Assembly: GCA_031281025.1 (NCBI GenBank)
Contig: JAITFY010000069.1
Coordinates: forward strand, 1-33,129
Length of the DNA stretch: 33,129 nucleotides
Reading direction: 5' to 3'
Source: Treponema sp.
Lineage (GTDB): Bacteria > Spirochaetota > Spirochaetia > Treponematales > Breznakiellaceae
A program made the position numbers and the translations under genes. Shown here one piece after another: positions 14,607-32,887 of this stretch. A model generated the notes under the pieces. The model saw only the letters and a list, made by a program, of their open reading frames with translations, had not been told where the DNA came from and did no database searches. Position 1 is the stretch's first letter, and each line of letters begins with the position of its first letter.

Positions 14607-16126
14607 AAAAAAATATAGTTGTTTTATGTTTAATGCTTTTTTTGTTATTGAGCGCCTGCGATATTTTAAGGTCTTCATTGTTTAAAGTTGTTTCCTGGAC
14701 ACCGGGAGACGGTTATCATTCAGATCCGGGAAATATAATTATTTCTTTTGATTTTTCACACACTCCACATAAATCCAGTGTAGAGCGAAACTTTACACTT
14801 AACGAAGATGGAAATCGTGTAAGAGGATTTTTTAAATGGGAAAAAAACAAAATGACTTTTGTCCCACTGGTTCCTCTTAAAAAAAATGCTGACTATACAA
14901 TAAATATTTCCACCGATGCTCGTGATACCAACGGCCTTTCTATGGAGACGGCGTTTTATCATGTTTTTACTACGAGACCTTGTACAACCCGTCCAGATTT
15001 AATTTCGTGTTTTCCATCAATGCATGAAGAAATAAGCGATTTAAAAAGCCAGATAATACTGGAATTTTCATTACCCATACCGCTAAAAAGTTTATACGAT
15101 AACATTTCATTTGTTCCATCAATGACAGGTTTATGGCGGCAGGAAGATGAAGGGAAAACAGCCGTTTTTCAGCCTTCGGATATGTGGCTGCAAAATAACC
15201 GTTATGAGATTCGTATTTCTTCTTCATTGACAGATAACAATGGAATGAACATAAGAAATGGGTTTTCCAGTGTATTTATAACTGGAGCTGATCACGAAAT
15301 ACCAGCGCTTTTGTCTGCAAGCCGAATCACAAAAGCGGGTATTTCTATTCAGTTAATGCCGGACAGGGGGTTTTCATGTGTATCAGAATTACCGGTAGAA
15401 AACTCCGGCTGGGAAAAAGATGACCGGTTTTTGCTGGTTTTTTCCAAACCTGTTGACAGCCTATTGGTTAGAAATTATACGAATATTGAAAATGGTCCCA
15501 ATTTTGTTATGGAAACATTACCAGGTTTTAAAACAGAATTTATTTTTAGATTTGAAAATACGCCTGTTTATGAAAGCAGATTTACATTGAGAATAAGGAA
15601 TGGTATCAGAGATGAATCTGGAAATGAAACCAAAGATGAAAGTATTTTCCGGATCTTTGCCGACGGAGAATTTTCAAAACCACCGGAACTTGCCGGAATC
15701 AGAATACCAATGGCGCCTAAAAACCATACGGATTCTGAACCTGTTTTTTTTACAATTGATTCGCTTTATGAAACTATTCCCATAACAGACGAAAACTATC
15801 CATCCGGTGAAACTGTTAATACATGGATAGAATTGTATTTTATCACTGCAGAAGAAACGTTGATTGATGTTTTTTCCCTAATGGAATTGTTTCGTGTAGA
15901 AACTTCGAACAATGTGATTTATTTTTCTCCAAAACAGATAAAAACATCAGATTTTACATTTGTTGAACCACAATCAGGATGGGAAGATTTTCAAAGAGTA
16001 GAAATTATTGGTGATCTTAGAAATTCAACCAACTTTGGAATAATAAATTTTCAAATTGCTGCCGGTCTTAGGGATAATGCCGGTAACAGAAACGAAAACA
16101 GCTTTAACGTATCACTTAAAAAGTAG
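14603..16126 (+). CDS. Lipoprotein with Ig-like (Big_5-type) domains, paralogue 2
   Basis: This 507-residue lipoprotein (lipobox LLLLSAC, Cys about 19) is built like the preceding protein: Big_5-type units at about 25-125 (VVSWTPGDGYHSDPGNIIIS, MTFVPLVPL, DYTINISTDARDTNGLS), 130-225 (LISCFPSMHEEIS, YEIRISSSLTDNNGMN) and about 270-350 (FLLVFSKPVDSLL, FTLRIRNGIRDESGNETKD). The final 150 residues are beta-rich without a clear repeat. The two genes are probably an old tandem duplication, since they share domain order more than sequence. GTG 14603 is the start: GGAGG lies 7 nt upstream and the signal peptide begins there. Seven bases separate its stop from the first RND gene. Confidence 0.78.
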   Translation: MKKNIVVLCLMLFLLLSACDILRSSLFKVVSWTPGDGYHSDPGNIIISFDFSHTPHKSSVERNFTLNEDGNRVRGFFKWEKNKMTFVPLVPLKKNADYTINISTDARDTNGLSMETAFYHVFTTRPCTTRPDLISCFPSMHEEISDLKSQIILEFSLPIPLKSLYDNISFVPSMTGLWRQEDEGKTAVFQPSDMWLQNNRYEIRISSSLTDNNGMNIRNGFSSVFITGADHEIPALLSASRITKAGISIQLMPDRGFSCVSELPVENSGWEKDDRFLLVFSKPVDSLLVRNYTNIENGPNFVMETLPGFKTEFIFRFENTPVYESRFTLRIRNGIRDESGNETKDESIFRIFADGEFSKPPELAGIRIPMAPKNHTDSEPVFFTIDSLYETIPITDENYPSGETVNTWIELYFITAEETLIDVFSLMELFRVETSNNVIYFSPKQIKTSDFTFVEPQSGWEDFQRVEIIGDLRNSTNFGIINFQIAAGLRDNAGNRNENSFNVSLKK

Positions 16127-16133
16127 GGGTTAC

Positions 16134-19100
16134 ATGAGAGAATTAATAGTTTTTTTTGTCCGCCGTTTTGTTACTGTAACAATGATTATTGCAGCGGTGG
16201 TTATTGCAGCAGTTTTTTCACTTTTTAATATGCCAATTAACAGATTGCCGGAATTTTCTGTGCCAAGGGTAACTGTGGAAACACTGTACCCTGGCATGGC
16301 AGCTAACGAAATCAGGAGCATGGTGACAATCCCGATAGAGGACGGCCTTTCGGCGATAAAAGGCCTTGAAAGAATACGAAGCATTACACGGGACAATCGC
16401 TCATTTATCAGCCTGGATTTCCGCTGGGGAACCGACCCAATGGCGGCTTCTGTTCTTGTTCGCGAAGCTGTTGATACGGTTTATCCAGGCTTGCCGGAAG
16501 GTATTCGTAAACCAACGGTAACCTCAGGCAATTCCGGAGTTGAACCCCATGCAGTTATTGCTGTAAGTTCACGTAACGGGAATGCTGAATTTGCACGCAA
16601 GCTCGCCGAATACGAGATACAGGCACGCCTGCGCAGAATCGATGGCGTTGGTTCTGTCGTTATAGTTGGCGGTGAAATCCTGGAAGAGAGGTTATCCCTT
16701 GATGTTCAGAGGCTTGCCGCTCTTGGTCTTACGCCCTCTGATTTTGCAGGAATCCTTGCCCAGGAAACTGTTGACATTCCCGCAGGAAATGCCCGCGAAG
16801 GAAACATGGAGCTTGTTGTGGTAAGTTCTGGAAGACCGGATACAATTTCGTCACTTTCACAGGTAATCCTGCCCATTGGCTCCGGAACTTTTAGGGTTGA
16901 AGATGCCGGAGAACTCAGGTCTGCTGCAACGCGCAGGGAAAGCGTTTTTGTCTACAACGGAATTGAAGCAACAGCCCTGGAGATTTACCGCAGGCCGGGC
17001 GCTGATCCGCTGCGTTTATCCCGTGACATAGAAAAAACACTTGATGAAGCGGCTTCTTTTTTTTCACGTGATGCGCACATTGAGCTTGTAGCAGATTCAA
17101 CTCCCTCATTGATTAGTAGCATTACCGGTTTGCTAATATCCGCCTCTCTTAGCGTTGTGGCAGTTGTAATCGTACTGTTTTTGTTTTTACGCAGGCTTAA
17201 ACACAGCTTTCTTGCTTCCATGTCGATCCCCTTTTCAATTGCTGCGGGTATTTGCATGCTTTCCGTTACGGGAAAATCCCTGAACAGCATGAGTCTTGGC
17301 GGACTCGCCATGGGCATAAGCCTTGTTTCTGACATCAGCGTAATTGTTTTGGATCTTCTCCACAGGACTTTTGGAAAAAGGGAAACAATACCGGATTCGG
17401 ATGAAGTTGGAAACAAAGCGTTTTCGATTGCTGGTTCAAGCATAACATCCACATTAACAACTGCATTAGTTTTTATTCCGATAATCATGCTCCCTGGAGC
17501 ATTAGGCAGTATCTTTGGCGATATAACAATTGCTCTTGTTACTTCGGTAACAGCAGGATGGTTCTACGCTCAATTTTGTCTTCCTTCCCTGTATCGATTG
17601 TTCTTTGGTTCTGCGATAAATAAAAAACTAAAAAATATTAAAACTGTTTTTACAGATGGCAGTCTTGTAAAAAAATATTCAAATTTGCTTTTAAAAGTTC
17701 TTCGTCGTCCGGTTAAGTTTTTCATTTTAACCTCACTATTAAGCATAATAGGTTTTTTTACACTATTTATGCGTCCAGTTGTTTTTTTAAATCCAGACGA
17801 TGCGGAAGAAGTATGGGTTTCAGTTGTTTTTTCTCCTGGTACATTGTTGGAAAATTTGGAAAATTATGCAGGTAGTGTTTCCTGTTATATTTCAAGGCTG
17901 CCATCTGTAAAAACAGTGTATGGAAGAGCAGGTTCCGAAGAAGAAGATGTTAACCGCAGAGCAGACATCGACTACAGGAGAGAAGAACTCATCCTGCGTT
18001 GTGTGCTTGAAAAAAGAGTCAGGCCGCAGAAAGCGTTAGTTGAGATAACCGGCGCTTTGAAACAATTCGATCTGGAAAATAACCTTCCGCCGTTTTCAGT
18101 GTATTTTCCAAAAGATAGAGTTGAAGCGCTGCTTGGATTATCCGCCGCACACACGTATGTGATCATGGCAAAAGACAGGGAAGAATTAATTGAGCGAATC
18201 GAACTTGCAGAAGAAATTTTTAATGCAAAGTCAGTTGGGGCAAATTTTAGACCGCAGGGACAAAGGCCTGAATTACGTTTGTATCCTAACAGGGAGGCTG
18301 CCGCATACCTGTCAATATCAGCGTCGGAAATAGCCGAAACTTTGTACATCCTTAACGAAGGGGTTGTTGTAACAAAACTGGAAATTGAAGGCAGACCCCT
18401 TGATGTGCGTGTAACAGGGCAAAATGCAGGTTATGGCGCTTTGGCGTATAATTCCGTTCAAAGGCTGGAGCAAATTCCATTAAGAACATCTCAAGGTAGA
18501 ACAGTTTTCCTTGGCTCATTGGGCAGAATAGAGCATAAAGAAGCGGAAGCATCTCTAACACGGCTTGATCGCTCCGATGTTATTTATGCAGATATTGCAG
18601 CAGACAGGAGCAATACTAAAGCAATCAAAAGTATTGCGGAAGAATTTCCCTGGTTTACTGGAGCAGATGAATCGGTTTTTGGCCGTTATCGTAATTCATT
18701 GATCCTTTATGTTTTACTCGTATTGATACTGCTCTATTTAACAATGGGCGCTCAATTTGAATCTTTCCTGCTTCCGGTGATCCTTATGATTACAATTCCC
18801 ATTTCACTTGCCGGCGCAGGGCCTGCACTTTTATTGGCCGGTTCAATGGTCGATTCAGGCGCCATACTTGGACTTACCGTTCTTTTTGGTCTTGTTGTGA
18901 ATAACAGCCTGATTCTTTATGAGATCAGCGAAGAAAAAATGAAAGCTGGTTTTTATCCGATGCAGGCTGTTTATCGCGGAGCCAACGAACGCTTTTTGGC
19001 AATTTTAATCACAATGATAACAACCATATTCGCTTTATTGCCATTAATAATCAGTCCAATGGGAAATTCTCAAAAATCTATGGCTGCTGCCATGCTTGGA

Positions 19101-19196
19101 GGTCTTGCGGTATCAACCATACTCAGCTTATTTGTAATTCCTCCGGTTCTTGTCAGGTACTTCAAATGGAAACTAACAAGAGGAGGTTATAAATGA
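16134..19196 (+). CDS. RND efflux transporter (AcrB-like), first of a tandem pair
   Basis: This 1020-residue inner-membrane RND permease has the usual layout: TM1 near the N-terminus (VTMIIAAVVIAAVFSLF), porter loop 1 (VPRVTVETLYPGMAANEI, VEDGL-type and GVGSVVIVGG segments), TM2-6 (about 335-500), porter loop 2, and TM8-12 (about 855-1010). The proton-relay positions are atypical: in TM4, GISLVSDISVIVLD carries Ser399 then Asp400 where AcrB has Asp407-Asp408, and in TM10, GLVVNNSLILYE carries Asn923 where AcrB has Lys940. ATG 16134 is chosen over an in-frame upstream ATG at 16056 because AGGGGT lies just before it and the homologous N-terminus (MRELIVFFVRRFVTV) starts there. It overlaps the second RND gene by four bases (ATGA), as in MdtBC-type heteromeric pumps. 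Confidence 0.92.
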   Translation: MRELIVFFVRRFVTVTMIIAAVVIAAVFSLFNMPINRLPEFSVPRVTVETLYPGMAANEIRSMVTIPIEDGLSAIKGLERIRSITRDNRSFISLDFRWGTDPMAASVLVREAVDTVYPGLPEGIRKPTVTSGNSGVEPHAVIAVSSRNGNAEFARKLAEYEIQARLRRIDGVGSVVIVGGEILEERLSLDVQRLAALGLTPSDFAGILAQETVDIPAGNAREGNMELVVVSSGRPDTISSLSQVILPIGSGTFRVEDAGELRSAATRRESVFVYNGIEATALEIYRRPGADPLRLSRDIEKTLDEAASFFSRDAHIELVADSTPSLISSITGLLISASLSVVAVVIVLFLFLRRLKHSFLASMSIPFSIAAGICMLSVTGKSLNSMSLGGLAMGISLVSDISVIVLDLLHRTFGKRETIPDSDEVGNKAFSIAGSSITSTLTTALVFIPIIMLPGALGSIFGDITIALVTSVTAGWFYAQFCLPSLYRLFFGSAINKKLKNIKTVFTDGSLVKKYSNLLLKVLRRPVKFFILTSLLSIIGFFTLFMRPVVFLNPDDAEEVWVSVVFSPGTLLENLENYAGSVSCYISRLPSVKTVYGRAGSEEEDVNRRADIDYRREELILRCVLEKRVRPQKALVEITGALKQFDLENNLPPFSVYFPKDRVEALLGLSAAHTYVIMAKDREELIERIELAEEIFNAKSVGANFRPQGQRPELRLYPNREAAAYLSISASEIAETLYILNEGVVVTKLEIEGRPLDVRVTGQNAGYGALAYNSVQRLEQIPLRTSQGRTVFLGSLGRIEHKEAEASLTRLDRSDVIYADIAADRSNTKAIKSIAEEFPWFTGADESVFGRYRNSLILYVLLVLILLYLTMGAQFESFLLPVILMITIPISLAGAGPALLLAGSMVDSGAILGLTVLFGLVVNNSLILYEISEEKMKAGFYPMQAVYRGANERFLAILITMITTIFALLPLIISPMGNSQKSMAAAMLGGLAVSTILSLFVIPPVLVRYFKWKLTRGGYK

Positions 19197-22100
19197 AGTC
19201 GTTAGTTTCGTGGCTGGAAAGAAAAAAAGCCAGTCTTTGCATATTGGCAGGAATCTGTGCAGTATCGTTATTCGTCATTATTAATTCAGGTGAAACAATT
19301 AAACAAAGTACAGGAGGTTCATATGTAATACGAATTAAGCATTATGGTATTGATGCTGCAGAAATGGAAAGAAGTATTACTATTCCACTGGAAGATGCTT
19401 TTTTTCTGATTCCCGGCATCATGTCTGTTCAAAGTTCCAGTGTTAACAGTTTGTCAAGTGTTTTTGTAAGGTTTAAACCAGGAACAAAAGGACGTTATGA
19501 AGCAGTTCGTGATGCTGCACAACGGGTATACGAAACACTTCCCTCATCGGCACAAAGACCGGAGATTTTAAGTTCCAACAATTCAATTGTTCCGGTATGG
19601 TCAGCTTCCGTTATAGCAGATAACAAAATGGAAGATGTAAATGAAATTGTTTTAGCGGCGGAAATGCTTGAAAAAATTGTAAAGCCAAGACTGGAAAGTC
19701 TTGAAGGAGCAGGAGAAGTTCTTGTTTCCGGTGCAGGTTTAAAAGAAATATTTATTATTTTTGATCAGGAAAAACTAAGCCTGCTTGGTTTGCAGCCAAT
19801 GTCGGCAGCTTCTATCCTTGCAATGAACGATTCAATTTTTTCCGGCGGTTCTATTTTAATGCAAAACAGAGAGACAATAATTTCTGTGGATGGCAGGTAC
19901 GGTAAGATAAATTCGTTAGAGCCTGATTCACTTGAAAAAGCGCTTATTCCACTTGGGGACGGAAGATTTGTAGAGCTTTCAGAAATTGCCTTAATAACCG
20001 GACAGGAGCGGGAGCCCGATATACTTTCACGTTTAAACGGCAGAAGGACAGCAAGTATTGCCATCATGGGAAGGTATGGAGCAGATCTGCGTAAATTGTC
20101 TGTTGACATCAACAGGGAATTGTCCTCTCTTTCATTGCCGCTGGAATTCACCGTGTTATCTGACCTTGGAGCGGAGGAAGCCGCTGCTTTTAGATCGGTT
20201 TTAATAGCCGCATTGTTAGGCGCCATCATGGTGGCAATTGTCAGTTTTTTATTAAACAAAAACAAACATTTAAACATCTCCGGCTTTTTTTGTGCGCTGG
20301 CAATTCCATTGATTTGTCTGATTTCGGCTGCAATACTTGGCATTTTTGGCTTTTCTCTTGACAGGCTTCTGTTGGCAGGAATCGCTGCCGGAATAGGTGT
20401 TGCAATTGATGCTGTCATTCTCTGTTCTGAAAGACTGCGCAAATGTATCAATTACAATTGCGCTTCGGCGGAAATATCGTCGCTAACAAGACCGCTATTG
20501 GCAGGTGCGGCAACAACTGTAGCAGCTCTCATTCCACTTACAGCGATTGATGACAGCGGTGCAAAAATTATAGCAAACGCAATTATAGTTGTAACAATCA
20601 CGACGTTTATCCTGAGTCTTTCTTTGCTGCCTCCGCTGCTTCTTTGGAATGTAGACAAAAAACCGCAAAAAACAAAACAAACAGGGCAGTTATCCAAGCG
20701 ATTATCACATCAGTCCAGCAGAATTCTTGCTGCAACGGTAAGGTTCAGCGCCCGCTATCCGGTTGTAGTTCTGGCAGCAAGTTTAATTATTACAGTTTCT
20801 GCAGTTATTATGTTATTTGCAAAAGGTGTGGATACCGGAAGTTTTGGTTCCGAAGATTCAGTTTTTGCGCAGGTTGAATTCAGCGGAGGTTTACTTACCG
20901 AAGAAGTAGACCGGCTTCTTGCAGTTTACAGCAGGCAGCTTTTGGATCACGCAGGAATTGTAAACATCGAAGCAGGCTCGCGAACAGGATCCGGCTCTCT
21001 ACTTATTTCTTTTGATCCTAAACAAAGAAATGCTCACTCTGTCAGAGATTTAGCAAGACATATTTCCATTCCCGGCGGTTTTATTTTCTTTCATGAAAAT
21101 TCTGCTAAAGACCGGTACTGGGAAATTTTTATTTACGGAGATGAAGATCAAAAATGCCGCGAACTTGCAGAAGAATTGGCAATTATCTGTGCCGATTTTA
21201 CATTGATAAACGATGTGGTTCTGAATTTTAAACAAGGCAGTAAAAAAATGGTATTGCTGCCAAACAGGGAAAAATTTGCAGAATCGAATATTAGTTTTTC
21301 CGCTGCATCCTCAATGGCGCGATTGGGCGTTTATGGACCTGTAGCTTATAAAAGGCTAAATGCAGATGGAGAAATGGATGTAAGAATCAGAACAGCCGAT
21401 GGAAAGCAAAATGCTGTTAAACGTCAATCAAGAGAGGGTTTGCAAAATATCCTTGTCTCTAAAAGCAATGAAGATATTAATATTTCACTTTCTCTTAATT
21501 CACTTATGGATATTAGGGAAGAAACAGAACCTTCCAGTATAAGAAGATACAACCGGCGAAGATATGCTTCGATTACAATTTCTACAAAACCAATGGATCC
21601 GCGCCGTGTAAAACAGGAGCTAATCCACATGTTCAGAAAACTAGACCTGCCGCCAGGTTACTCAATTGAATTTGATCCTCAAGCAATTAAAGAGAGCGAA
21701 AGCATATCTGCTACAGTAATTTCTCTGATTATGGCAATTATTTTTTGTTACATGATAATTGCTTCGATTAACGAATCATTTTCTGTTCCATTGCTGGTTT
21801 TATCAGCCATACCGCCATCTTTGGCCATTCCTGCCATTTGGCTTGTTCTAACCGGCAGTTCATATAACTTAATCATTGCATGCGCTTTTATTGCGGTAAG
21901 CGGCATGACGATTAACGCATCTGTTCTTTGCGTAGACAGCATACTTTTAAAAGTCCAAACGGAAAATAAAAAAACTATTTTAAATGTTTATCTGGCTCTC
22001 CGAAGAAAAATGCCCGCTCTTCTTGCTACAACCGGAACAACTATAATCGGAGCAATACCATTTCTTTTTCTTACAGAGGGAGCAAATACACTGATAAGAA

Positions 22101-22210
22101 CTTTATCATTGGTAAGCGCTTTAGGAATTGCATGTTCTTTTATTTGTTCAATAACAATAATACCATCAATTTTATTTCTAACAAAAAAAACAAATCACGC
22201 TTTTGCGTGA
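19193..22210 (+). CDS. RND efflux transporter (AcrB-like), second of a tandem pair
   Basis: This 1005-residue RND permease is full length, with TM1 (LCILAGICAVSLFVII), two porter loops (AEMERSITIPLEDAFFLIPG, LEGAGEVLVSGAG; second loop about 560-850) and two 5-helix bundles. Its relay residues differ from AcrB and from its neighbour: TM4 GIGVAIDAVIL has Ile405 then Asp406 in place of Asp407-Asp408, and TM10 SGMTINASVLCVD has Asn908 in place of Lys940. The porter sequences are more divergent than in the first copy (no canonical RVTVET opening). AGGAGGT lies 5 nt upstream of ATG 19193, which overlaps the previous stop (ATGA). The stop lies in a perfect hairpin. It probably forms a hetero-oligomer with the first RND protein. 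Confidence 0.9.
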   Translation: MKSLVSWLERKKASLCILAGICAVSLFVIINSGETIKQSTGGSYVIRIKHYGIDAAEMERSITIPLEDAFFLIPGIMSVQSSSVNSLSSVFVRFKPGTKGRYEAVRDAAQRVYETLPSSAQRPEILSSNNSIVPVWSASVIADNKMEDVNEIVLAAEMLEKIVKPRLESLEGAGEVLVSGAGLKEIFIIFDQEKLSLLGLQPMSAASILAMNDSIFSGGSILMQNRETIISVDGRYGKINSLEPDSLEKALIPLGDGRFVELSEIALITGQEREPDILSRLNGRRTASIAIMGRYGADLRKLSVDINRELSSLSLPLEFTVLSDLGAEEAAAFRSVLIAALLGAIMVAIVSFLLNKNKHLNISGFFCALAIPLICLISAAILGIFGFSLDRLLLAGIAAGIGVAIDAVILCSERLRKCINYNCASAEISSLTRPLLAGAATTVAALIPLTAIDDSGAKIIANAIIVVTITTFILSLSLLPPLLLWNVDKKPQKTKQTGQLSKRLSHQSSRILAATVRFSARYPVVVLAASLIITVSAVIMLFAKGVDTGSFGSEDSVFAQVEFSGGLLTEEVDRLLAVYSRQLLDHAGIVNIEAGSRTGSGSLLISFDPKQRNAHSVRDLARHISIPGGFIFFHENSAKDRYWEIFIYGDEDQKCRELAEELAIICADFTLINDVVLNFKQGSKKMVLLPNREKFAESNISFSAASSMARLGVYGPVAYKRLNADGEMDVRIRTADGKQNAVKRQSREGLQNILVSKSNEDINISLSLNSLMDIREETEPSSIRRYNRRRYASITISTKPMDPRRVKQELIHMFRKLDLPPGYSIEFDPQAIKESESISATVISLIMAIIFCYMIIASINESFSVPLLVLSAIPPSLAIPAIWLVLTGSSYNLIIACAFIAVSGMTINASVLCVDSILLKVQTENKKTILNVYLALRRKMPALLATTGTTIIGAIPFLFLTEGANTLIRTLSLVSALGIACSFICSITIIPSILFLTKKTNHAFA

Positions 22211-22236: not shown

Positions 22237-25200
22237 ATGAAAAATTACCTTTTTAATAAAACTATTGCTGCATTTTTAACTTTTATTTTTATTTTAAGCT
22301 TATTTCCGTCAATAGGATTTGCTCAGTCTAATCCCTTTTTATCACATGGAGAAATTAAAGGGTTTAACAGATCCGTTATTGACAGCCATTTTAGCAGGGC
22401 AGACAGGGAAATAAATCCAGAACGCTGGTTAACGGAAGCCAGGTTTGGCATAACACAGGCAATTGCCGCATGGGAGTTAATTGCCTGTTCGTTATTTGAA
22501 AATACTTTTCAAATGGAAGAAGCGAAAAACCAAATAATAATTTGGAGTAACGAGGAGCTGGAAAAACGCTTTTCGCAGTGGTTAATTGAACGTTTTTTTG
22601 GCGACGCAGTTGAAAAAGCTGTTATGAATTTATCGCAAATGCTGGAAAATACGCAGATTAGCTATTCCTGGCATCTTGATGATGACGGCAATATACTCGT
22701 TGATGATAAAACCGGCAATCCAATGGTTATACGCCCTGATGATACAAACAGGGAATTTTCCAATGATTTACTAAGCTGGCGGAATGAAGCGGATAACAAT
22801 ATTAGAACAGCAAGTAATTCATTTGATAACGTTATGATACATTTGTATCCAGAACTATTGGCATATATTCCTTTTGAATTACGCGAATCAATGTTTGATA
22901 TAATCAACGAAACTTCATTATTATTAAACAATTCCATCAGGAGAGAATTCGAAAACATTGCCGCCAGAGAAGAAAGGATATTTACAAACAGGCGAACAAG
23001 AGATATCTGGAGTCTTAGAAGAAAAAGCGAAGATGAAGCAGCAAGGGTCTTCACAGAAAAATTAATTGCAGAAACAGAAGCTTCTGTTAAAAACGGCATT
23101 GATGAATTGAATGTCAGAATAGAACAAGCGGCTGCCGGCACTGGCGATCTTGCTCTATTAGGTGAAGAATGGCTGCGCTTGTATAAAGAGCAATTTGAAA
23201 GAGGACTAAAAGCATGGGAAGAAGCCGAAGAAAGATTCTTTATCAGGCGTATTGAATGGGAACAGGATTCGATACGGCTATTTTACGAAAGTGAAGAAAT
23301 ATGGAGCAAAGCTTTTGATCAGCTGGAAAAACAACGGGATGATTGGGAATTAAGCGCAAAGAACTTATTTGAAGCCGGCGTATTAATGTTTCAGAATATT
23401 TCTGATGACTTTAAAAAAAATATAGAGGATGCAAGAAGAGAATTTGAGCTGAATATGGCAATGCGGATAGGAGAAGGAACAACCAAAGTAAAAGCGCTGA
23501 TTGATATGTATCTTCTTTGTTCATCTGCAGCTATTTCTGCATTGGAAAATATTAATTATTGGCAAGCACAATACGGTGAAGGCGAAATAAACCCATACGA
23601 GAATGACGCTTATCAAATGTATAATTCGTATTTGGAAAAAGCTCTTGAAATACGGGAAGAAATTTTGAGTAATTATACAGAACTTTTTGGAACAGGGGCG
23701 CTAAAAGATATCCTGTCTCCTGATGTATCAAGTGCAGATTTTTATCTTGATGAATATCAAATTGCACTTATTAAAGCAAGAGCTCTTGTTCTTTATTGGG
23801 AGCGAAAAACTGCAATAGCCGAAGCAGTAAACATTTATGCAAGTGATCTTGGTGCAGGAAGAATGACAGAAGCAGAAAGCCGGCTTGCATGGGAAGAAGC
23901 AAAAGCGGTCTATAATGCGTCGATAGCTAATTACGAAAAAGAATTGAATGAGCTTAATTCAATTGGAAATGATCTTCAAAAACAGAAAGATAAATTGAAT
24001 AACCTTGTTTTGATAATGCAGCAAGAGGAAGATAAATTAAACCAGCTGCATTCTGAATATACCTCATTAATTACTATCTCTGTAGTTAACCGTGAAAGTT
24101 ATTTTTACCATGACTTTAATACAAAATATAACAACCTTGTTTTGGAATACAAATTATTCCAAATGACGGGACGTAATTCATTGTATTTTGCAGAACTGGA
24201 ATATGCAATGAAATGGGAAATTTTGGAACAAAGGGAATCGGCAGAGAAAATCCTTAATATACTTATATACGGAGAAAATGACGAACTGCTTTCTCTTCTG
24301 GAACTGGAAGAAAAAGTTTTAGAAGGGTCAGCATCAGAGGTCGATTTGAGGATACGTCTTGCTGCAATAGATCTACTAAGTTTATTTGAGGAACCGTATA
24401 GCGGCGCAGATTGGTATTCCAAAGTAAAAGGAATTTATTTGTCAGAAGATGAAAAAGCTGCTCTTTACGGAAATGGTTTGAATACCCAGCTTTATACTGA
24501 TTATTTAAACAGCTCGCAGCTGCTTCTGAATAAACGTCTTGAATATGAATTGGAAGCATTTATAAACTTCTTGATAGAGAAAGAAAAAGCGGACAACATA
24601 GAGGACGATGAACCGGATATTCCTGAATTTGCTCTATTATTCCTGGACGACATGGAAAAAGCATTTTATATTCATGAAGTTTTAACTAACTTAAAATACA
24701 GAATAGATCAGGGAAAGTCATACTATACTGATGATTACGAAGAAAATTTAATAATTGAATATTTTGTATCAGGATATTCTTTTTTTGAAAGAGACAGTTC
24801 GTTTCTTATAAACTACTATGATGATTATTTCTTAAGTATAGGTTTATTGGAATTTTTCAATGAATATTCGATTTTTAGTTACTATATCCAGGAAGAAGCG
24901 TGGCAAAAATCACTTTTTGCCATAGCAAATTTGTTTAATGAATACGGCCTGGCTGCACCGGTTAATTTATTACCCGATATCCATGATATTTGCCAGGCTA
25001 TACTTGGCAAACACGGTGATTTTGTACTAAATTCCGCTCAATTTATTCATGATTTTGATAGTTGTTTCCAGATGATGCCGCAATGGATTGAATCAGAAAT
25101 AACTAATTGGAAAAATGCATTAATTGAATATATTGCAGCTTATGCGTTTTTTATTAACATAAAACCCGAAAAGAACACAATGGCTTTAGATATTGAGCAA

Positions 25201-28200
25201 AATGTTTTAAATGATAATTACGATTCAATAATTAATGAATTAACATCTTTTTATTTTCTGGACATTATTGAAACAGAAAGGATAAACATTCTGTTAAATG
25301 ACATGTATAATGAACTACAGTTATTGTTTTATATGAACATTATTACTGAAACATGGGAAAATAATCTCCGAATCTCATTAACAAATGAAAAACATTGGCG
25401 GCAGTATTTGCCGGATGTTAATTTAACAGACTTTTCCGTACCTGCATTGGTTTCGTCATGGGAAGAAGGTTTATTGGCAGATGCTTTGTTTAATGCAGAT
25501 TATCACACAAACAGAATAAACGATTTTTATATTATTTATTCACAAAAAGAAACATCAGAAATAGAAGGAGTTGCCGGAAATTATTATAATTCATATTTTA
25601 ACAGCACTTCTATTAATAGATTTCGTGTTAACTCACTGCAATTTCATTACAAAGACTTTGCAAACGCAGCCAGATTGTATGAATTATCAATAATGTCATC
25701 TGATGAGATTAGAGTACAGATATTGGCTAAAGAAGTGGAATTAAAAGCCCAAGAGGAAGTTTATAATTCAATCAGAAATAATTACTTCCGGGAAGCTAAA
25801 GAATTTATGGAAATTGGTACTCTTTATGATGAACAATACAGTGTATTAAAAGATAAATACGATTTTATGGATCAAAAACGATTTGAATACGAAAAACAGG
25901 ATGTTATACAAAGATGGGCAAGCACAGCATATCTAAATTTAGATACTTTTGATTTGGAAAATTGCAAGGCAAAATTATTAAGGGCAGAAATTGTATTAAA
26001 TGTTCTGTCTGATCTTTACAATGACGAAACAATACGTTCAGATAATTCTGAGTATGCCGCTTTATATTCTGCATACGAACAAAGTTTTGCCAGAAGACTT
26101 AAAGTAATGAACCTTATTGAAACACTGAATTCAGAAAGTGCAAGTGAATATGCCAACAATCAACTTATTTTTATAAATTATCAAAATTCACTTAATCAAC
26201 TTGGGTATGTTAATCAGGATTATTCTGATTATTATTTACCGGAATCAAGAAACGAATGGAAAATTGAAAATATTATAACAGTAAAAAATGGACGTCTTGT
26301 TTTTTCCAGAAATGACTCTATGTTAATAACAGGAGTAAATCAATCCGAGGCGGAGACAATTGCCGGCTTTTTTAATACAAAGGCAATTCCAGAAAATGAA
26401 TTTTTCGAAATAAGCCAGTTTGATGAAGCGCTAAGGGGATTGAGCCAAAGAATGGCGGGTTATTTTTCCAATCCTGATAAATTAATAAACTGGGGTTTGG
26501 CAAGAGAATATTTGTTATATTCATTAATAAATTCAAACCAGGATTTAGGATTTTTAGAACGCTATTATATTGGATTGGAACAACTGGATAGAAACGGCTC
26601 TATGGGCAGCCAAACAGTTTCTACTGGAGTATCTTATTTAACGGCAAATACAAAAAGTTTGTATTCTGCAATAAGTGATAAAGATGTTATTATAAATTTT
26701 GAAACCATCTATAAAAATGCCTGGGATAGTTTGTCTCAGGAAGAAAAAGCAGATCTTGAATTTTATGTGATTCTTATGCTTCATGATACCAATGATTATT
26801 TTGAAGGTTTTTCTAATGTATATACTCTTTCTGCTTATAATACAGCAGTTGATTATGTTGCTGAGCGTTACAATCGTGCAAGAAAAAAAGCAAAAAATAT
26901 TTTGACTGGAGTTAACATTCCAGCATATAAAACAATGCGGGATATAAATAAAAAAATGCTGGAGAGAATTACTTCGGCTTATGAAGAAAAATTAAAATTG
27001 GTAAATAATTGGCAAAATCAATTAATGAGTATTTTATCAACTTCACAAAGCCTCGCTTTGGCATATAAAGAATCGAACGAAAGACTTATTTCTTTGGAAG
27101 GGCATGTTATTGATGGGCAAAAAATTGTTTGGGAAGATTTAAACCAGACTTTTTTGGAATCTGGTAAAATAACTGAAGAGGATATTGCTGAAATAAAAGA
27201 ATACTGGGAAACAATGACGGAAGAAAATGCAAATATGGAATTCACCAGTGTTTCCAGAGCGTTATCGGCCTTGTTTAATTGGGCAAATAACGAAGAAATT
27301 ATAAGCAAAAATACATTGGATAATTTATGGCTGCGGGATATTCAAAATCAAAAAATTAACGAAAATTATTTTATTGCTGCCGCAGACGCATATATTGCCG
27401 GAACTATTAATGCAGAAACTTTAAGAGCAGCAGCAGAGAATGCCTATGGAAAATATTCTGTCTCATTAAAAAATCATCAATACAATATGTACGCAATTAT
27501 GATGAATAATTTATCATTGTATTTGGACATCGACAATAATTTTAGTTATGTGTTTGATGCAATTGGAGAAGAAATAATTTTATTAACCGCAGCATCACTG
27601 GAAAACAGATATAACGCAGAGCTTGCAGCCAGAGAAATTGAGTGGAATCAATTAATGAAAGACATCGAAGAAAAATACTCGGAATGGCTGGATTCTGCCG
27701 CTCAAATTTTTGAAAGGGGAAGAGCCGACTGGAATGCCGGTTTCCAAAGGATGAAAGCTGCAGAAGAACAATGGTATCTGAATTTCGAAAACGAATACAA
27801 CCGTGTAGAAAATGAATGGAACGAAGCGTATTTAATAGGTCTTATGGACAAAGAAAGCTGGCTGGAAATGGCGGCTGACGCAGCAAATGAAGCTTCCACA
27901 GATGCGTTTTTATCGCTGATTGGCGCGGAAGGAGAACGTTTATCCCGCTTTGTTGACACCAGAGAACCCTTTGGTATTCGTGATGCAATCCCCGAAGCGC
28001 AAAACCTGATGAATGAGCTGCTACAGTCTTCTGGAATCGCCAGCATGGCTAATGCCTTTGGTTCCTTAAACAGTATTGCAAGTACCGCTTCTGTAAACGT
28101 ACGACGCGGTTTGGGAGGCGCTTCTACATGGGACGCTAACCTGGTTAAAACAGCTGCAGCGGACCTGGCAAGACAAGTAAACTCCGAAATCGCTGATAAC

Positions 28201-31200
28201 GAAGCAAGGAAACTTGCGCATAATGCACGTTTAACTGCTAATGAGGCAATTAAGGGTTTGGAAGAAAGCGTGGATTCTGCAAATGAAAATTTCCGTCGTA
28301 GTATGGATAATACTTTTATTTTTAACGGGCTTTGGTCAAGGAGTGGAAATAATTACGTAAAAGATGTAATAAAGGGTTCTACACTCTTAAAACCAGTCGT
28401 TTCTAAAACAGTAACTGTTACAGGTTATGAAAATTATATAATGGAACCAATAATACTAAAAACAAGTCTGGAAGAAAATTATCTTGCCAGTTTGAATTCT
28501 ATTGCTATACAAGGATTATTGGAAAATGTTTTTTTTGAGATACAGGTTATATCCAGTGAAATTTTTGGAGTTGGTGAAAACCCAAAAGAGATAGAAGGAA
28601 ACCGCGAACAATCTCCTGGTAAATTCGGCGCTCACATTGGATACGGGCCCAGCACAAAACCAGAAAAAGATTTTAAAAAATCAAAAAAATCAATGTTTAA
28701 CGATGAAGGCGCCGGAGAACTTGGACGCTTGATGACGGAGTTTACCTATTGGGCTATAATTGATGCCAGAGGAACGGCTGAACTTTCTCTCGCACCGTGG
28801 GATAAACGAATATGGAATGACGACGGAAGCTGGTTTTCGTCACCTTCACTTCGCTCAGTTGGTTCGATAGCATGTTCGATAGCTGCAGGTATAGTTTCTG
28901 GCGGTGCAGGTTTTGCCGCGATATTTACAACAGCACTGGTAGGTTCTGCAAGTGAAATTGCATTTGGAGCGCTTGATGTTGCTTATGGATATAAATCCTG
29001 GGATGAAGCAGCTTTTGGTGTTGGTAAAACGATATTAACAAGTACAGTTAGTGGTTTAGGTTCAGAATATTTTGGTAAGGGGCTGACAAGTACTGTAATG
29101 GAGAAGGTAAACGGCCCTGTAAACACTGTCCTTGCACAAACCGCATTAACAGGAACTCAGACTTTAACAACTGGTTTTACTACCAGTTTAGTAGGCGGTA
29201 TTACCTACAACAGCAGCGATGGTTTTGGCTATTCCAACAAAGCTTTTAAAGCTGGAATGACAGGTGTCTTTAATAATACACTAACATCCATGGTCAGCAC
29301 ATTTACCACATCAAGCTTAACAGCAATAAACACTGGTTATTTATCGGATGATTCAAAAACAAATAAATTATTGGGTTTTAATCTTAATAATCGTGAAGAT
29401 GTTGGTAAACTTAATAACCTTATCGGCTCGCTTGCAGGTCAGGGAGTAGATTATGCTTTGGGCAATAATTTTACTATGAATGTACTCAATTTGAACCAAT
29501 TTGGCGAAGAAAAATACAATAGCGGCTTACTCGAATTAAATATTGGCCGCAGCGGCACAACAATGAACATAGGAACAGGAGGCGCAAATGTTAGTTATAA
29601 CAATTTAACCGCTGCTTTTAGAGGCGCAGCAGTCTGGAATGTAAATACACGTATTAGCGGATATATAAAAAACGAAAGCAAAGAAGGGGGCAACCAATTT
29701 GATGCTGCAGTAACTTTACGCGCTCAATATGGCTACGGAGATGATAGCGCAAAAGGTCAATTATGGGATATACTTAAAGGGGATACTTTGTTGAAGACTG
29801 ATGGAGAAGGGGATTATAGAGCGATGACTACACTCAACAAAAACGGGCAGAAAGTGGTTCATCTGACAGAGTACCGGCAAAACATGAGTGCAGAAGAACA
29901 ATTTCTTCTTGCAGTGGTTCTTGGACATGAAGCACACAGGGATGGAATAGTGACGGCTGACAATTATTTGAATACAAGAACAGCCACGCTTGCGCACACA
30001 GAAATGGCGATGAGGATGATGCTTGGCGGAGAAAGTATAGCGTTTGATCAAAACCTCGTAAACGATATGTCTGCACTCATAGCTGTAGCCACCGCGGGTG
30101 ATATGTCTGTTTTCAATGACTATGTTGATAATAATTACGATTCGAGCGCGGATTATTGGAAGTTGGTTGAAGGCGCAGATGGCTTTCACTACTTTGAATG
30201 GGACGGCAAATTAGAATTTGATTTGTCATCAATCGGAAGAGGAAACAATATTGGGGATTTAAGTGATGAAGATTTAGCGGCTATTTGGAGTGTGGGCGTT
30301 AATTTTGCAGATAAGGATGCTTTCTTGGCAGCTCTTGGGACGCTTGGTACTTTGAATAATGCAATTCATGGTTTTGAAAGAACCTTTAATGTTGTGCCAG
30401 GAAATACACCAACTACAGGTATTTTTGATACACATTGGGCTACTTTTGAAAATGCGATACTGGCGGCAGGTGATTCGGGACTGATAGCTAAAAGTGCCCA
30501 AAATATATTGAATCTTGGCACTGCGCCACAGGTTTTTGCCAATGGCTTTGGTGAAATTACGAGCAGTTACGGATGGAGAGCTATGTTATTGGGGAATACT
30601 GCTGGTCAGATTCGACCTCATTTCGCATGGGATTTAGGAGCACGAGGTCCTGGAAACAGACGAGAAAATGCAGACCCAAGATTAGTAGCCCCAATGGATG
30701 GAACACTGGCTTTTCATTTTACTCAACAAATGGGCATTCAACTGATAACTTCAGGCGGAGAGAATGAATCTATTACTTACTCCCATGCTAACGCATCATC
30801 AATTAGGAATTTTACAGGGTTGTTTTTTACTGATGGCATTAATTTAAGCGGCAATACGCTGACTGGAATATCTCAAAATATGGTTGTTGGAGTAATGGGA
30901 AATACAGGCTTATGGTCACAAGCCCCGCATGTAGATTTGATTTACAGAAAAAATGGTGTTGTACAAGACCCAGCAATCTTTTTCTATCAAAATGGAGGAA
31001 GGAATTCTTTCCCAATAACCCCTTTAGCCAGAGCTATGAGTGGGTTTTCTGGTACAGCCAATAATGTACAACTTACTTATGAAAATGTTCAAGGGATGTA
31101 TAATTATCTTACTACCGGTCCAAACAGACAAAATGTACAAGATATTTTCTGGACATTTGGAGCAAGCAGTGATTCGACACTTTTTCATAGGGTTTATACA

Positions 31201-31224
31201 AATCATAATATATTGGGTTTTTAA
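22237..31224 (+). CDS. Giant secreted protein (2995 aa): helical stalk, hydrophobic segment, HEAHRDG motif, C-terminal M23-like peptidase domain
   Basis: ATG 22237 has GGGAG 6 nt upstream and opens a signal peptide (LTFIFILSLFPSIGFA, cleavage before Q30); an in-frame ATG at 22132 lies inside the RND gene. Residues 30 to about 1880 are Glu/Trp/Tyr-rich and helical, with coiled coils at about 518-615 and 1147-1234 and related Trp-rich modules at about 339-385 and 1801-1875. About 2206-2310 is Ala/Gly/Ser-rich and hydrophobic. His2564-Glu-Ala-His-Arg-Asp-Gly follows, with a further His at 2587. About 2768-2918 is an M23/LytM-like domain: HFAWD (His2795, Asp2799), VAPMDG, YSHA (His2850), VMGNTG and PHVDL (His2898, Asp2900 where His is normal). 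About 75 residues follow. From memory it resembles very long Leptospira/Treponema proteins (TIGR04388, Lepto_longest). It is 26 nt behind the RND pair. Function unknown. Confidence 0.85.
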   Translation: MKNYLFNKTIAAFLTFIFILSLFPSIGFAQSNPFLSHGEIKGFNRSVIDSHFSRADREINPERWLTEARFGITQAIAAWELIACSLFENTFQMEEAKNQIIIWSNEELEKRFSQWLIERFFGDAVEKAVMNLSQMLENTQISYSWHLDDDGNILVDDKTGNPMVIRPDDTNREFSNDLLSWRNEADNNIRTASNSFDNVMIHLYPELLAYIPFELRESMFDIINETSLLLNNSIRREFENIAAREERIFTNRRTRDIWSLRRKSEDEAARVFTEKLIAETEASVKNGIDELNVRIEQAAAGTGDLALLGEEWLRLYKEQFERGLKAWEEAEERFFIRRIEWEQDSIRLFYESEEIWSKAFDQLEKQRDDWELSAKNLFEAGVLMFQNISDDFKKNIEDARREFELNMAMRIGEGTTKVKALIDMYLLCSSAAISALENINYWQAQYGEGEINPYENDAYQMYNSYLEKALEIREEILSNYTELFGTGALKDILSPDVSSADFYLDEYQIALIKARALVLYWERKTAIAEAVNIYASDLGAGRMTEAESRLAWEEAKAVYNASIANYEKELNELNSIGNDLQKQKDKLNNLVLIMQQEEDKLNQLHSEYTSLITISVVNRESYFYHDFNTKYNNLVLEYKLFQMTGRNSLYFAELEYAMKWEILEQRESAEKILNILIYGENDELLSLLELEEKVLEGSASEVDLRIRLAAIDLLSLFEEPYSGADWYSKVKGIYLSEDEKAALYGNGLNTQLYTDYLNSSQLLLNKRLEYELEAFINFLIEKEKADNIEDDEPDIPEFALLFLDDMEKAFYIHEVLTNLKYRIDQGKSYYTDDYEENLIIEYFVSGYSFFERDSSFLINYYDDYFLSIGLLEFFNEYSIFSYYIQEEAWQKSLFAIANLFNEYGLAAPVNLLPDIHDICQAILGKHGDFVLNSAQFIHDFDSCFQMMPQWIESEITNWKNALIEYIAAYAFFINIKPEKNTMALDIEQNVLNDNYDSIINELTSFYFLDIIETERINILLNDMYNELQLLFYMNIITETWENNLRISLTNEKHWRQYLPDVNLTDFSVPALVSSWEEGLLADALFNADYHTNRINDFYIIYSQKETSEIEGVAGNYYNSYFNSTSINRFRVNSLQFHYKDFANAARLYELSIMSSDEIRVQILAKEVELKAQEEVYNSIRNNYFREAKEFMEIGTLYDEQYSVLKDKYDFMDQKRFEYEKQDVIQRWASTAYLNLDTFDLENCKAKLLRAEIVLNVLSDLYNDETIRSDNSEYAALYSAYEQSFARRLKVMNLIETLNSESASEYANNQLIFINYQNSLNQLGYVNQDYSDYYLPESRNEWKIENIITVKNGRLVFSRNDSMLITGVNQSEAETIAGFFNTKAIPENEFFEISQFDEALRGLSQRMAGYFSNPDKLINWGLAREYLLYSLINSNQDLGFLERYYIGLEQLDRNGSMGSQTVSTGVSYLTANTKSLYSAISDKDVIINFETIYKNAWDSLSQEEKADLEFYVILMLHDTNDYFEGFSNVYTLSAYNTAVDYVAERYNRARKKAKNILTGVNIPAYKTMRDINKKMLERITSAYEEKLKLVNNWQNQLMSILSTSQSLALAYKESNERLISLEGHVIDGQKIVWEDLNQTFLESGKITEEDIAEIKEYWETMTEENANMEFTSVSRALSALFNWANNEEIISKNTLDNLWLRDIQNQKINENYFIAAADAYIAGTINAETLRAAAENAYGKYSVSLKNHQYNMYAIMMNNLSLYLDIDNNFSYVFDAIGEEIILLTAASLENRYNAELAAREIEWNQLMKDIEEKYSEWLDSAAQIFERGRADWNAGFQRMKAAEEQWYLNFENEYNRVENEWNEAYLIGLMDKESWLEMAADAANEASTDAFLSLIGAEGERLSRFVDTREPFGIRDAIPEAQNLMNELLQSSGIASMANAFGSLNSIASTASVNVRRGLGGASTWDANLVKTAAADLARQVNSEIADNEARKLAHNARLTANEAIKGLEESVDSANENFRRSMDNTFIFNGLWSRSGNNYVKDVIKGSTLLKPVVSKTVTVTGYENYIMEPIILKTSLEENYLASLNSIAIQGLLENVFFEIQVISSEIFGVGENPKEIEGNREQSPGKFGAHIGYGPSTKPEKDFKKSKKSMFNDEGAGELGRLMTEFTYWAIIDARGTAELSLAPWDKRIWNDDGSWFSSPSLRSVGSIACSIAAGIVSGGAGFAAIFTTALVGSASEIAFGALDVAYGYKSWDEAAFGVGKTILTSTVSGLGSEYFGKGLTSTVMEKVNGPVNTVLAQTALTGTQTLTTGFTTSLVGGITYNSSDGFGYSNKAFKAGMTGVFNNTLTSMVSTFTTSSLTAINTGYLSDDSKTNKLLGFNLNNREDVGKLNNLIGSLAGQGVDYALGNNFTMNVLNLNQFGEEKYNSGLLELNIGRSGTTMNIGTGGANVSYNNLTAAFRGAAVWNVNTRISGYIKNESKEGGNQFDAAVTLRAQYGYGDDSAKGQLWDILKGDTLLKTDGEGDYRAMTTLNKNGQKVVHLTEYRQNMSAEEQFLLAVVLGHEAHRDGIVTADNYLNTRTATLAHTEMAMRMMLGGESIAFDQNLVNDMSALIAVATAGDMSVFNDYVDNNYDSSADYWKLVEGADGFHYFEWDGKLEFDLSSIGRGNNIGDLSDEDLAAIWSVGVNFADKDAFLAALGTLGTLNNAIHGFERTFNVVPGNTPTTGIFDTHWATFENAILAAGDSGLIAKSAQNILNLGTAPQVFANGFGEITSSYGWRAMLLGNTAGQIRPHFAWDLGARGPGNRRENADPRLVAPMDGTLAFHFTQQMGIQLITSGGENESITYSHANASSIRNFTGLFFTDGINLSGNTLTGISQNMVVGVMGNTGLWSQAPHVDLIYRKNGVVQDPAIFFYQNGGRNSFPITPLARAMSGFSGTANNVQLTYENVQGMYNYLTTGPNRQNVQDIFWTFGASSDSTLFHRVYTNHNILGF

Positions 31225-31299: not shown

Positions 31300-31686
31300 A
31301 TGAAAACACTAGAAGGAATTTTGCTGCTTTTTTTATTTATTGCTATGCTTTTTTCATGCAATAGAAATACAAATGAAGCAAGAGAACGAATTTCAGAGCA
31401 AAATATTGTTGGAGATATTACTATCTTTGATGAGTTTACTGAAAGCAATGAAATTGAATTGGAATCCTTTTTTAACCCATATTTGTTTGTGCTTGAAGAA
31501 GTTGAAGTATACGATTTTCCTGATATTATAACTGGCAAAATAATTTATACCTTAGAAATGTACGAAGATATATTTTTTGTTGGAAGAAGCGTTGTTACAT
31601 TTGAAATTAATGGGATAAACGATCACTGGACGAAAATAACTTCTCCTGTTGTAGGCTGGGTATTTGCAGCAAAGTTCGCTCAATAA
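31300..31686 (+). CDS. Small lipoprotein with SH3-like C-terminus
   Basis: This 128-residue lipoprotein has signal GILLLFLFIAMLFSCNR (lipidated Cys about 20), an acidic Ser/Glu-rich linker (about 25-60), then a compact beta-rich segment (about 62-128): LFVLEEVEVYDFPDI, FVGRSVVTFEINGI, HWTKITSPVVGWVFAAKF. The WxKI...GWVFA ending is the classical last-strand pattern of bacterial SH3 domains, which often bind peptidoglycan peptides. AAGGAGAG lies 4 nt upstream of ATG 31300. Its signal peptide (MKTLEG...FSCNR) is strikingly like that of the lipoprotein at 31997. Its position after a giant protein with a peptidoglycan-hydrolase-like tip suggests an immunity or accessory role, but that is inference. 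Confidence 0.72.
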   Translation: MKTLEGILLLFLFIAMLFSCNRNTNEARERISEQNIVGDITIFDEFTESNEIELESFFNPYLFVLEEVEVYDFPDIITGKIIYTLEMYEDIFFVGRSVVTFEINGINDHWTKITSPVVGWVFAAKFAQ

Positions 31687-31996: not shown

Positions 31997-32887
31997 ATGA
32001 AAACATTAAAAAAAACCTGGTGTGTTTTTTTAGTTATGGCTCTGTTTTTTTCCTGTAACAGAGCTATAAATGTTATGAAAGAACAGATTGTACAGGAAAC
32101 AACTGTTGATACTATTGTCGCTGTACCGGAAACTGTAAATGAAAATATATCTGAAAGGGTTTCTGAAACAGATAATATATCACTTTTGATAAGGGAGAAT
32201 CGTGATTTGCTTACAGATCATTATTGGAGTATTTCAGATGGCAGATGGCTTGAAGGCGGTCAGACCCATGATTGGGTTGGCTCTATGACACCGCATGCTG
32301 TTTTTTATAAACTGGAAATACCACCAAACAGTGTTATATATCAAGAACGGCTCAGAAGGGAAATATTTTATTTTCTATATCAGACAGAAGAAAGTGACAA
32401 TTTTTTCCCAATCGGTTTGGTATCAAACGAACCATTTGAAATAATATTTAATGATAATTTTTCTTTCTTTAGGAAGTTAAGAGGTGGCAGACATTTTTCT
32501 GTTGGTAATAGGATTGGTGAACAAACAAATCTCAATTACCCCCTTGTCGGTATTTGGGAGGAGTATTCATTTATAAATGAATACCATTTGGTTGATCCTT
32601 TAGATAGTCTGTATTACATGGTAATTGATAAAGCAATACCATTTTGGGCAGTACGTGAGGGTACCTACTTAATAAGGCAGACTGGGGGTAATACATTCGA
32701 GACTGTATCCTCATTCCCTGATGGCCGCTTACAGCTTGAAGTAAAAAGCAACAGGCAGATGGTACTTAGGCCATTATTTGAATTGCCCGATGACGAAGAA
32801 GGTCTTGTTGATATTTTAATTATGGACCGAAACCAGATGAGGATTAGTGAGATACCTGAGGAGTATTTAAATTCTGATGGATGGTAA
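31997..32887 (+). CDS. Unrecognised lipoprotein, related at the N-terminus to the upstream small lipoprotein
   Basis: This 296-residue lipoprotein has signal TWCVFLVMALFFSCNR (lipidated Cys about 20) and an acidic linker (about 25-65) much like the 128-residue lipoprotein upstream. The body is beta-rich and aromatic: HYWSISDGRWLEGGQTHDW (about 75-93), a YKLEIPPNSVIYQERLRREI segment, VGIWEEYSFINEYHLVDP and a C-terminal REGTYLIRQTGGNTFETVSS. I do not recognise the family. TAGGAG lies 6 nt before ATG 31997. A 55-bp piece of this gene is repeated just after its stop. It could be an immunity or surface lipoprotein paired with the giant protein, or a cassette gene unrelated to it. Confidence 0.7.
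   Translation: MKTLKKTWCVFLVMALFFSCNRAINVMKEQIVQETTVDTIVAVPETVNENISERVSETDNISLLIRENRDLLTDHYWSISDGRWLEGGQTHDWVGSMTPHAVFYKLEIPPNSVIYQERLRREIFYFLYQTEESDNFFPIGLVSNEPFEIIFNDNFSFFRKLRGGRHFSVGNRIGEQTNLNYPLVGIWEEYSFINEYHLVDPLDSLYYMVIDKAIPFWAVREGTYLIRQTGGNTFETVSSFPDGRLQLEVKSNRQMVLRPLFELPDDEEGLVDILIMDRNQMRISEIPEEYLNSDGW
32219..32273 (+). repeat. Donor copy of a 55-bp direct repeat inside the lipoprotein gene
   Basis: This segment encodes HYWSISDGRWLEGGQTHD. It matches 32892-32946 at 50 of 55 positions in the same orientation, 673 bp downstream. Confidence 0.85.

What the first reader, a model, noticed from the sequence alone, without database searches (positions are those of the whole stretch)
30541..30990. 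M23/LytM-like domain with the HxH motif changed to HxD
HFAWD supplies the expected first zinc ligands (His2795, Asp2799) and YSHA supplies the expected catalytic-type His (2850). The terminal motif is PHVDL, so the residue that is normally the third zinc ligand (second His of HxH) is Asp2900. An Asp could still bind zinc, or the domain could be a non-catalytic peptidoglycan binder, as with degenerate LytM domains such as EnvC.
Basis: partly seen in the sequence, partly recalled or inferred. Interest (0 to 1): 0.65.

Follow-up and report, generated by a model that had tools for sequence, protein, structure and literature searches.

The report
Giant spirochaete toxin's variant wall-cutting domain
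The end of a 3,000-residue protein from a termite-gut-type spirochaete looks like an interchangeable cell-wall-cutting warhead of a weapon used against other bacteria, and one of the three residues that should hold its metal is naturally an aspartate instead of a histidine, a swap that also turns up in related spirochaetes and in phages.

Summary
HxD is not a lone mutation: of 11 domains of this long-insert M23 subfamily, 7 have HxD (five genera) and 4 HxH, and all 11 keep the other four catalytic residues. HxD also occurs in phage-tail M23 domains. The EnvC-like dead-domain reading is therefore disfavoured and a working one-His/two-Asp metal site favoured; activity is untested.

The larger result is context. 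The giant looks like a polymorphic toxin: a conserved body with exchangeable C-termini (M23 of three ligand types, VanY/M15, a papain-like fold matching CdiA-CT toxins), matched downstream lipoproteins (candidate immunity), orphan cassettes and orphan immunity genes. The window carries the M23 end, an SH3b lipoprotein, and an orphan lipoprotein of the papain-like type. The giant follows a conserved OEP-MFP-Ig-Ig-RND-RND cluster; in its genus giant and RND2 co-occur (22 both, 1 each alone, 15 neither), suggesting a dedicated exporter (inferred). New variant of a known kind.

The parts
22237..31224 (+). giant protein, about 2,995 aa from the likely start (frame opens at 22132)
   Evidence: body homologous in 24 of 59 related genomes
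22237..22326 (+). signal-peptide-like N-terminus (MKNYLF...FAQ), read by eye, no predictor run
28399..30201 (+). conserved pre-C-terminal body, after which homologues carry different C-terminal domains
30511..30993 (+). M23/LytM-like domain, long-insert subfamily, H/D/D ligand set
30619..30621 (+). H2795, first metal ligand
30631..30633 (+). D2799, second metal ligand
30784..30786 (+). H2850, catalytic-type His
30928..30930 (+). H2898, first His of the HxH position (catalytic type)
30934..30936 (+). D2900, Asp in place of the third zinc-ligand His (GAT)
31300..31686 (+). 128-aa lipoprotein with SH3b domain; candidate cognate immunity protein
   Evidence: hhalign probability 74.6 to 87.8 against partner SH3b profiles, best of 60 shuffles 1.2; not found by Pfam
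31997..32887 (+). 296-aa lipoprotein, 40-52% identical to the six lipoproteins directly downstream of papain-like-type giants; candidate orphan immunity gene
10356..13165 (+). outer-membrane efflux protein (OEP) and HlyD/CusB-type membrane fusion protein
   Evidence: Pfam; conserved order
13146..16126 (+). two Big_5 (Ig-like) domain proteins
   Evidence: Pfam
16056..22210 (+). two RND (ACR_tran) proteins directly upstream of the giant

Best explanation
The domain is the C-terminal warhead of a giant polymorphic toxin. The body carries a Sec-type signal and is probably exported, perhaps through the RND/MFP/OEP apparatus encoded just upstream (inferred). On contact with another bacterium the variable C-terminus acts on the cell envelope; here it is an M23-type peptidase that would cut peptide links in peptidoglycan (inferred from fold and residues). 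The metal is held by His2795, Asp2799 and Asp2900 rather than His/Asp/His, with His2850 and His2898 activating water (inferred). The producer is protected by the SH3b lipoprotein encoded next (31300-31686; inferred from position and co-segregation). A second lipoprotein gene (31997-32887) would protect against siblings armed with the papain-like version. Shown here: fold, residues, their conservation, exchangeable C-termini, matched partner families, orphan genes, gene-cluster conservation. Not shown: secretion, toxicity, peptidase activity, metal binding, immunity.
For: M23 fold. HxD in 7 of 11 long-insert M23 domains (window, G015, G355, G244, G063 cassette 2, G593 cassettes 3 and 5) with the other four catalytic residues in 11 of 11 (in the 7-row alignment all four are among the 14 invariant columns). 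One-base codon difference and dN/dS about 0.34/1.88 between window and G015 (dS near saturation). C-termini differ after a shared body: papain-like in 11 giants, M23 in others, VanY (E 2.3e-13), NlpC/CHAP-like. The papain-like domain model matches a papain-like toxin/immunity pair 9l5u and CdiA-CT 8ssm as best PDB hits. Partner families follow the C-terminal type; SH3b in partners of 13 of 21 M23-type against 1 of 17 other-type toxins. Orphan immunity in the window, in G008 and, reciprocally, in G031 (by eye). Orphan cassettes in G593, G063, G007 and T. parvum.
Against: No activity, metal or toxicity data exist. The domain fails the textbook M23 ligand definition (HxH). The single-sequence Pfam score is below the gathering cut-off. 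The HxH relative G008 shows that canonical ligands are available to the lineage, so Asp could be a step towards loss. The tree of the 11 domains is poorly resolved (1 of 8 inner branches starred) and cannot tell how often the swap happened (3 changes at fewest). SH3b is missing from partners of 8 of 21 M23-type toxins, including the gene next to G008's, which is an LRR-like protein (by eye). The papain-like type need not act on peptidoglycan: papain-like CDI toxins may act in the cytoplasm (recalled).
Confidence: 0.62

Rival explanations
1. Degenerate LytM domain: the Asp abolishes catalysis and the domain only binds peptidoglycan or activates a host amidase, as EnvC or NlpD do.
For: Third ligand changed in 7 of 11 subfamily members; EnvC is among the best structural matches (Z 12.9); degenerate M23 folds are known (PMC9662197, passages).
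Against: The other four catalytic residues are kept in all 11; the substitute is a good metal ligand; a close relative carries HxH; phage-tail M23 domains with HxD keep the same residues (26 of 32 stretches); EnvC-type domains have lost most of theirs (recalled). The C-terminus of a polymorphic toxin is expected to be an effector.
Confidence: 0.2
2. The giant is not a weapon but a self-acting envelope protein (wall remodelling for growth or periplasmic flagella), and the variable ends are housekeeping peptidases.
For: Sec-type signal, wall-peptidase folds, SH3b partners that could be wall binders.
Against: Sister genomes swap unrelated peptidase folds on the same body; 16 of 39 same-genus genomes, many incomplete, show no giant; orphan cassettes and orphan partner genes; the papain-like version matches CDI toxins.
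Confidence: 0.1
3. The window copy is an attenuated toxin on the way to decay.
For: The 128-aa partner is shorter than the other SH3b partners (262-486 aa), and a repeated, stop-broken fragment of the second lipoprotein gene follows it, showing gene remodelling at this locus.
Against: Giant frame intact over 3,030 codons; same Asp in an independent genome at 63% domain identity; dN well below dS.
Confidence: 0.08

Closest known systems
M23 peptidases (LytM, lysostaphin, StM23; Pfam PF01551)
   Same: Fold, HxxxD motif, catalytic His, first His of HxH, G[NS]TG loop
   Different: Third zinc ligand is Asp; long insert (about 35 aa) between the catalytic-His motif and the GNTG motif; sits at the end of a 3,000-aa protein
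Degenerate LytM factors (EnvC, NlpD)
   Same: LytM fold, incomplete canonical ligand set
   Different: Only one of five residues differs and it is metal-competent; no amidase-activator context seen
Phage-tail (tape-measure-like) M23 domains with HLDF
   Same: H/D/D ligand set with the other residues kept
   Different: Different proteins; lack the long insert
Polymorphic toxin systems / CDI (Zhang et al. 2012, PMC3482391, passages read)
   Same: Conserved body, exchangeable C-terminal effector, downstream matched gene, orphan cassettes, orphan immunity genes
   Different: Body not in Pfam or NCBIfam; no filamentous-haemagglutinin or RHS hit; linked to an RND/MFP/OEP cluster; the words M23 and VanY are absent from the held text of that survey

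Membership tests
M23 peptidase | HxxxD zinc-ligand motif | tested here: met
   HFAWD
M23 peptidase | catalytic His before HxH | tested here: met
   YSHA, invariant in A3
M23 peptidase | HxH with second His as third zinc ligand | tested here: not met
   PHVDL; HxD in 7 of 11 of the subfamily. So it is filed as a variant with the M23 fold, not as a canonical M23 peptidase
M23 peptidase | M23/LytM fold | tested here: met
M23 peptidase | Pfam PF01551 gathering score | tested here: not met
   20.1 of 28.7 bits on the domain
M23 peptidase | zinc-dependent peptidoglycan cleavage | not testable with these tools
   no wet-lab data
Degenerate LytM factor (EnvC/NlpD type) | catalytic residues lost | tested here: not met
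   four of five kept in 11 of 11
Degenerate LytM factor (EnvC/NlpD type) | activates an amidase | not testable with these tools
   none
Polymorphic toxin system | conserved N-terminal part with alternative C-terminal effector domains | tested here: met
Polymorphic toxin system | adjacent immunity gene matched to the effector type | tested here: met
   by position and co-segregation only; neutralisation untested
Polymorphic toxin system | orphan cassettes and orphan immunity genes | tested here: met
Polymorphic toxin system | effector is toxic to bacteria | not testable with these tools
   none
CdiA/FhaB two-partner secretion | haemagglutinin-type domains in the N-terminal part | tested here: not met
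   no such Pfam hit up to E 1
TIGR04388 Lepto_longest giant family | match to the family model | tested here: not met
   0 of 9 genomes at E 0.1

The most novel reading that the evidence does not exclude
Spirochaetes carry an undescribed toxin-delivery locus: a Sec-signalled giant polymorphic toxin moved across the outer membrane by its own OEP/MFP/double-RND machine with two Ig-like proteins. Its peptidoglycan-peptidase warheads have repeatedly shifted from a two-His/one-Asp to a one-His/two-Asp metal site, at the third ligand (HxD) in one group and at the first (DxxxD) in another, perhaps to work with another metal or to escape cognate immunity.
Probability: 0.3. Interest if true: 0.85.

Novelty: new variant of a known kind. 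Interest (0 to 1): 0.6.

Why it matters
It turns an odd residue into a testable question: does an M23 fold with a His/Asp/Asp site work, and with which metal? Natural HxH (G008) and HxD (window, G015) versions at 50-63% identity give a ready comparison. It also describes a large spirochaete weapon family with matched candidate immunity genes and a conserved RND-type exporter cluster; spirochaete antibacterial weapons are little described in the literature that I could search, and an RND pump exporting a 3,000-residue protein would be new to me.

Tried and rejected
TIGR04388 (Leptospira longest-protein family, recalled as a likeness) was tested and rejected. NCBIfam and Pfam name no family for the body. 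GHEAYRDG as a second metallopeptidase motif was dropped: the His is not invariant. BLASTP of the 128-aa partner against another SH3b partner found nothing; profile comparison did. A profile of only the three nearest domains finds no PDB chain; the 7-row profile does. The tree of 11 domains does not separate HxD from HxH and is weakly supported, so no count of origins is claimed. I first labelled G593 cassette 4 as a cysteine type; reading it showed M23 with HxH and no SH3b partner, and the count was corrected (13/20 against 1/18 became 13/21 against 1/17; the probability threshold of 20 was chosen after seeing the scores, and at 60 the uncorrected count is 11/20 against 1/18). T. parvum L117 (type unresolved) is the one non-M23 partner with an SH3b hit. 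Class labels (papain-like, NlpC/CHAP-like, an L,D-transpeptidase-like motif in G042) rest on motifs read by eye except where Pfam or Foldseek is cited. The DxxxD group and the ligand types of G063 cassette 1 and G593 cassettes 1, 2 and 6 were read by eye. The comparison with ordinary M23 (0 of 55 with HxD; 56 loci examined, one without a readable motif) required HxxxD, so it says nothing on DxxxD. G061 carries HIHIHID and its exact HxH register is uncertain.

Full report
What was checked. The stated frame, residues and numbering are exact: counted from the second ATG at 22237, H2795, D2799, H2850, H2898 and D2900. The domain belongs to the M23/LytM fold: weak Pfam match on the single sequence, significant profile match to solved M23 structures, and a predicted model (pLDDT 73.6) whose Foldseek matches and VIA-align scores are led by M23/LytM chains (Z 13.5 to StM23, 12.9 to EnvC, 12.0 to LytM).

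Is HxD fixed? In the first 59 related genomes only G015 (63% identical, HxD) and G008 (50%, HxH) carry the domain besides the window's own. Profile searches of 390, 195 and 392 genomes (order, family, phylum samples, overlapping), with reading of the loci, added G355, G244, G063, G146, G158 and G593. In all, the long-insert subfamily has 11 domains: HxD in window, G015, G355, G244, G063 cassette 2 and G593 cassettes 3 and 5 (five genera by the tables); HxH in G008, G146, G158 (the last two near-copies) and G593 cassette 4. HxxxD, the catalytic His and the first His of HxH stand in all 11. The Asp codon differs from His by one base. A tree needs at least 3 changes but is weakly supported. Ordinary M23 genes of the same searches have HxH in 55 of 55 readable loci (56 examined), against 7 HxD among the 23 toxin-type M23 domains that I read (Fisher 9e-5; sequences are related, so this is only a guide). 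A human-faecal phage record has it too.

A second ligand swap. In G010, G017 and G033 (contig C17) the HxH is intact but the first motif reads DxxxD; G593 cassette 1 appears alike by eye. Both swaps leave one His and two Asp.

What the protein is. The body is shared by 24 of 59 related genomes and 22 of 39 of the genus, but most matches stop before the M23 domain. Reading the ends shows unrelated C-termini: a papain-like domain in 11 giants (invariant Cys, His and Asn-Pro in the 8 aligned), M23 of three ligand types, VanY/M15 (Pfam 2.3e-13), and NlpC/CHAP-like. The papain-like domain (model pLDDT 82) finds as best PDB matches a papain-like toxin/immunity pair and the C. rodentium CdiA toxin (E 4e-4 to 6e-4, modest). 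Named relatives are Treponema MAGs, several with isolate names of a higher-termite gut MAG set (the prefix Emb289 occurs in PMC7024585, seen only in a search listing), a deer-omasum Treponema and Treponema parvum.

Partner genes. Of 42 toxin ends examined, 38 have an open frame of 100 aa or more starting within 450 nt downstream, many with a lipobox. Partners of 6 papain-like giants form one family. Those of the DxxxD giants G017 and G033 form another. Those of G063 cassette 2 and G593 cassettes 3 and 5, all HxD and from distant genomes, form a third. SH3b domains, scored with leave-one-out profiles, occur in partners of 13 of 21 M23-type and 1 of 17 other toxins; Pfam SH3_3 passes its cut-off in 5 of the 7 M23 partners scanned apart from the window's own. 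All 6 HxD toxins with a near partner have SH3b there; G244 has no partner within 450 nt. The window's 128-aa lipoprotein has SH3b by profile comparison. The next gene, 296 aa, is 40-52% identical over its length to the partners of six papain-like giants: an orphan immunity gene in the sense of polymorphic toxin loci. G008 carries such a gene too and a distal homologue of G015's partner; G031, a papain-like type, appears to carry a homologue of G015's partner (by eye). G593 holds a row of truncated bodies with different ends, each followed by another gene, and G063 holds three cassettes.

Export context. Directly upstream of the giant lie OEP, MFP, two Big_5 proteins and two RND proteins. Of 21 giants whose start lies inside the locus, 15 have an RND2 homologue directly upstream; of the other 6, two had at most about 310 nt of upstream sequence. 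Within the genus RND2 orthologues are found in 23 of 39 genomes and giants in 23: both 22, giant alone 1 (G060), RND2 alone 1 (G022), neither 15 (Fisher 1e-8; genomes are related and many incomplete). The whole gene order including two upstream lipoprotein-like genes is kept in G063 (another genus) and G053 (another family); G050 keeps RND2 next to the giant on a short contig; G042 keeps all but the RND pair; G048 shows none of it upstream. In G244 an RND-like pair lies convergent to the 3' end of the giant. In G027 and G028 RND2 and giant lie on different contigs. A dedicated exporter is a fair inference, not shown.

Mechanism and limits. Best reading: an interchangeable peptidoglycan-peptidase warhead with a His/Asp/Asp metal site, neutralised at home by an SH3b lipoprotein. 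The degenerate EnvC-like reading is less likely but not excluded. By the strict rule the domain fails one defining M23 feature (HxH), so it is called an M23-fold variant. Literature: the M23 review PMC9662197 (passages) gives H(x)nD and HxH as the conserved motifs; no held paper has HxD, M23 and peptidase together as whole words; papers on T6SS effectors and immunity proteins mention M23 (search listing only). Searches for polymorphic toxins with spirochaete terms and with RND showed no description of this family in their listings; of those papers only Zhang 2012 (passages) and PMC4751964 (passages, a Leptospira HINT protein) were opened.

Noticed in passing
window 32231-32262 and 32904-32935: A 32-base perfect direct repeat inside and just after the 296-aa lipoprotein gene; the second copy begins a stop-broken fragment of the same gene, a trace of recombination at the immunity locus.
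   Followed up: partly
window 8611-22210: Conserved cluster lipoprotein, TPR lipoprotein, OEP, MFP, Big_5, Big_5, RND, RND ahead of giant toxins in several spirochaete families; possible dedicated exporter.
   Followed up: partly
L191 and L192 (G593 C1:1010000-1045000): Row of orphan toxin cassettes with partner genes, with repeated genes beginning MKRRILVFMAERKPWD between them that look like Rpn/YhgA-type nucleases (by eye).
   Followed up: partly
viral loci L199-L230: HxD variants of M23 domains recur in phage-tail-like proteins (26 of 32 pattern matches complete).
   Followed up: partly
L085:1-2808: Giant relative G042 ends in a motif HNFGT...LGC reminiscent of L,D-transpeptidases; no Pfam hit.
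   Followed up: no
L117 (Treponema parvum ATCC 700773): A cultured oral treponeme carries a divergent giant, an SH3b-type partner and a truncated second cassette.
   Followed up: no
L111, L115, L118: Giant fragments on contigs labelled Tannerellaceae, Lachnospiraceae and Bacteroidales, probably mis-binned spirochaete DNA or transfer.
   Followed up: no
window 4202-6763: CHASE2 sensor fused to an adenylate/guanylate cyclase (Pfam).
   Followed up: no
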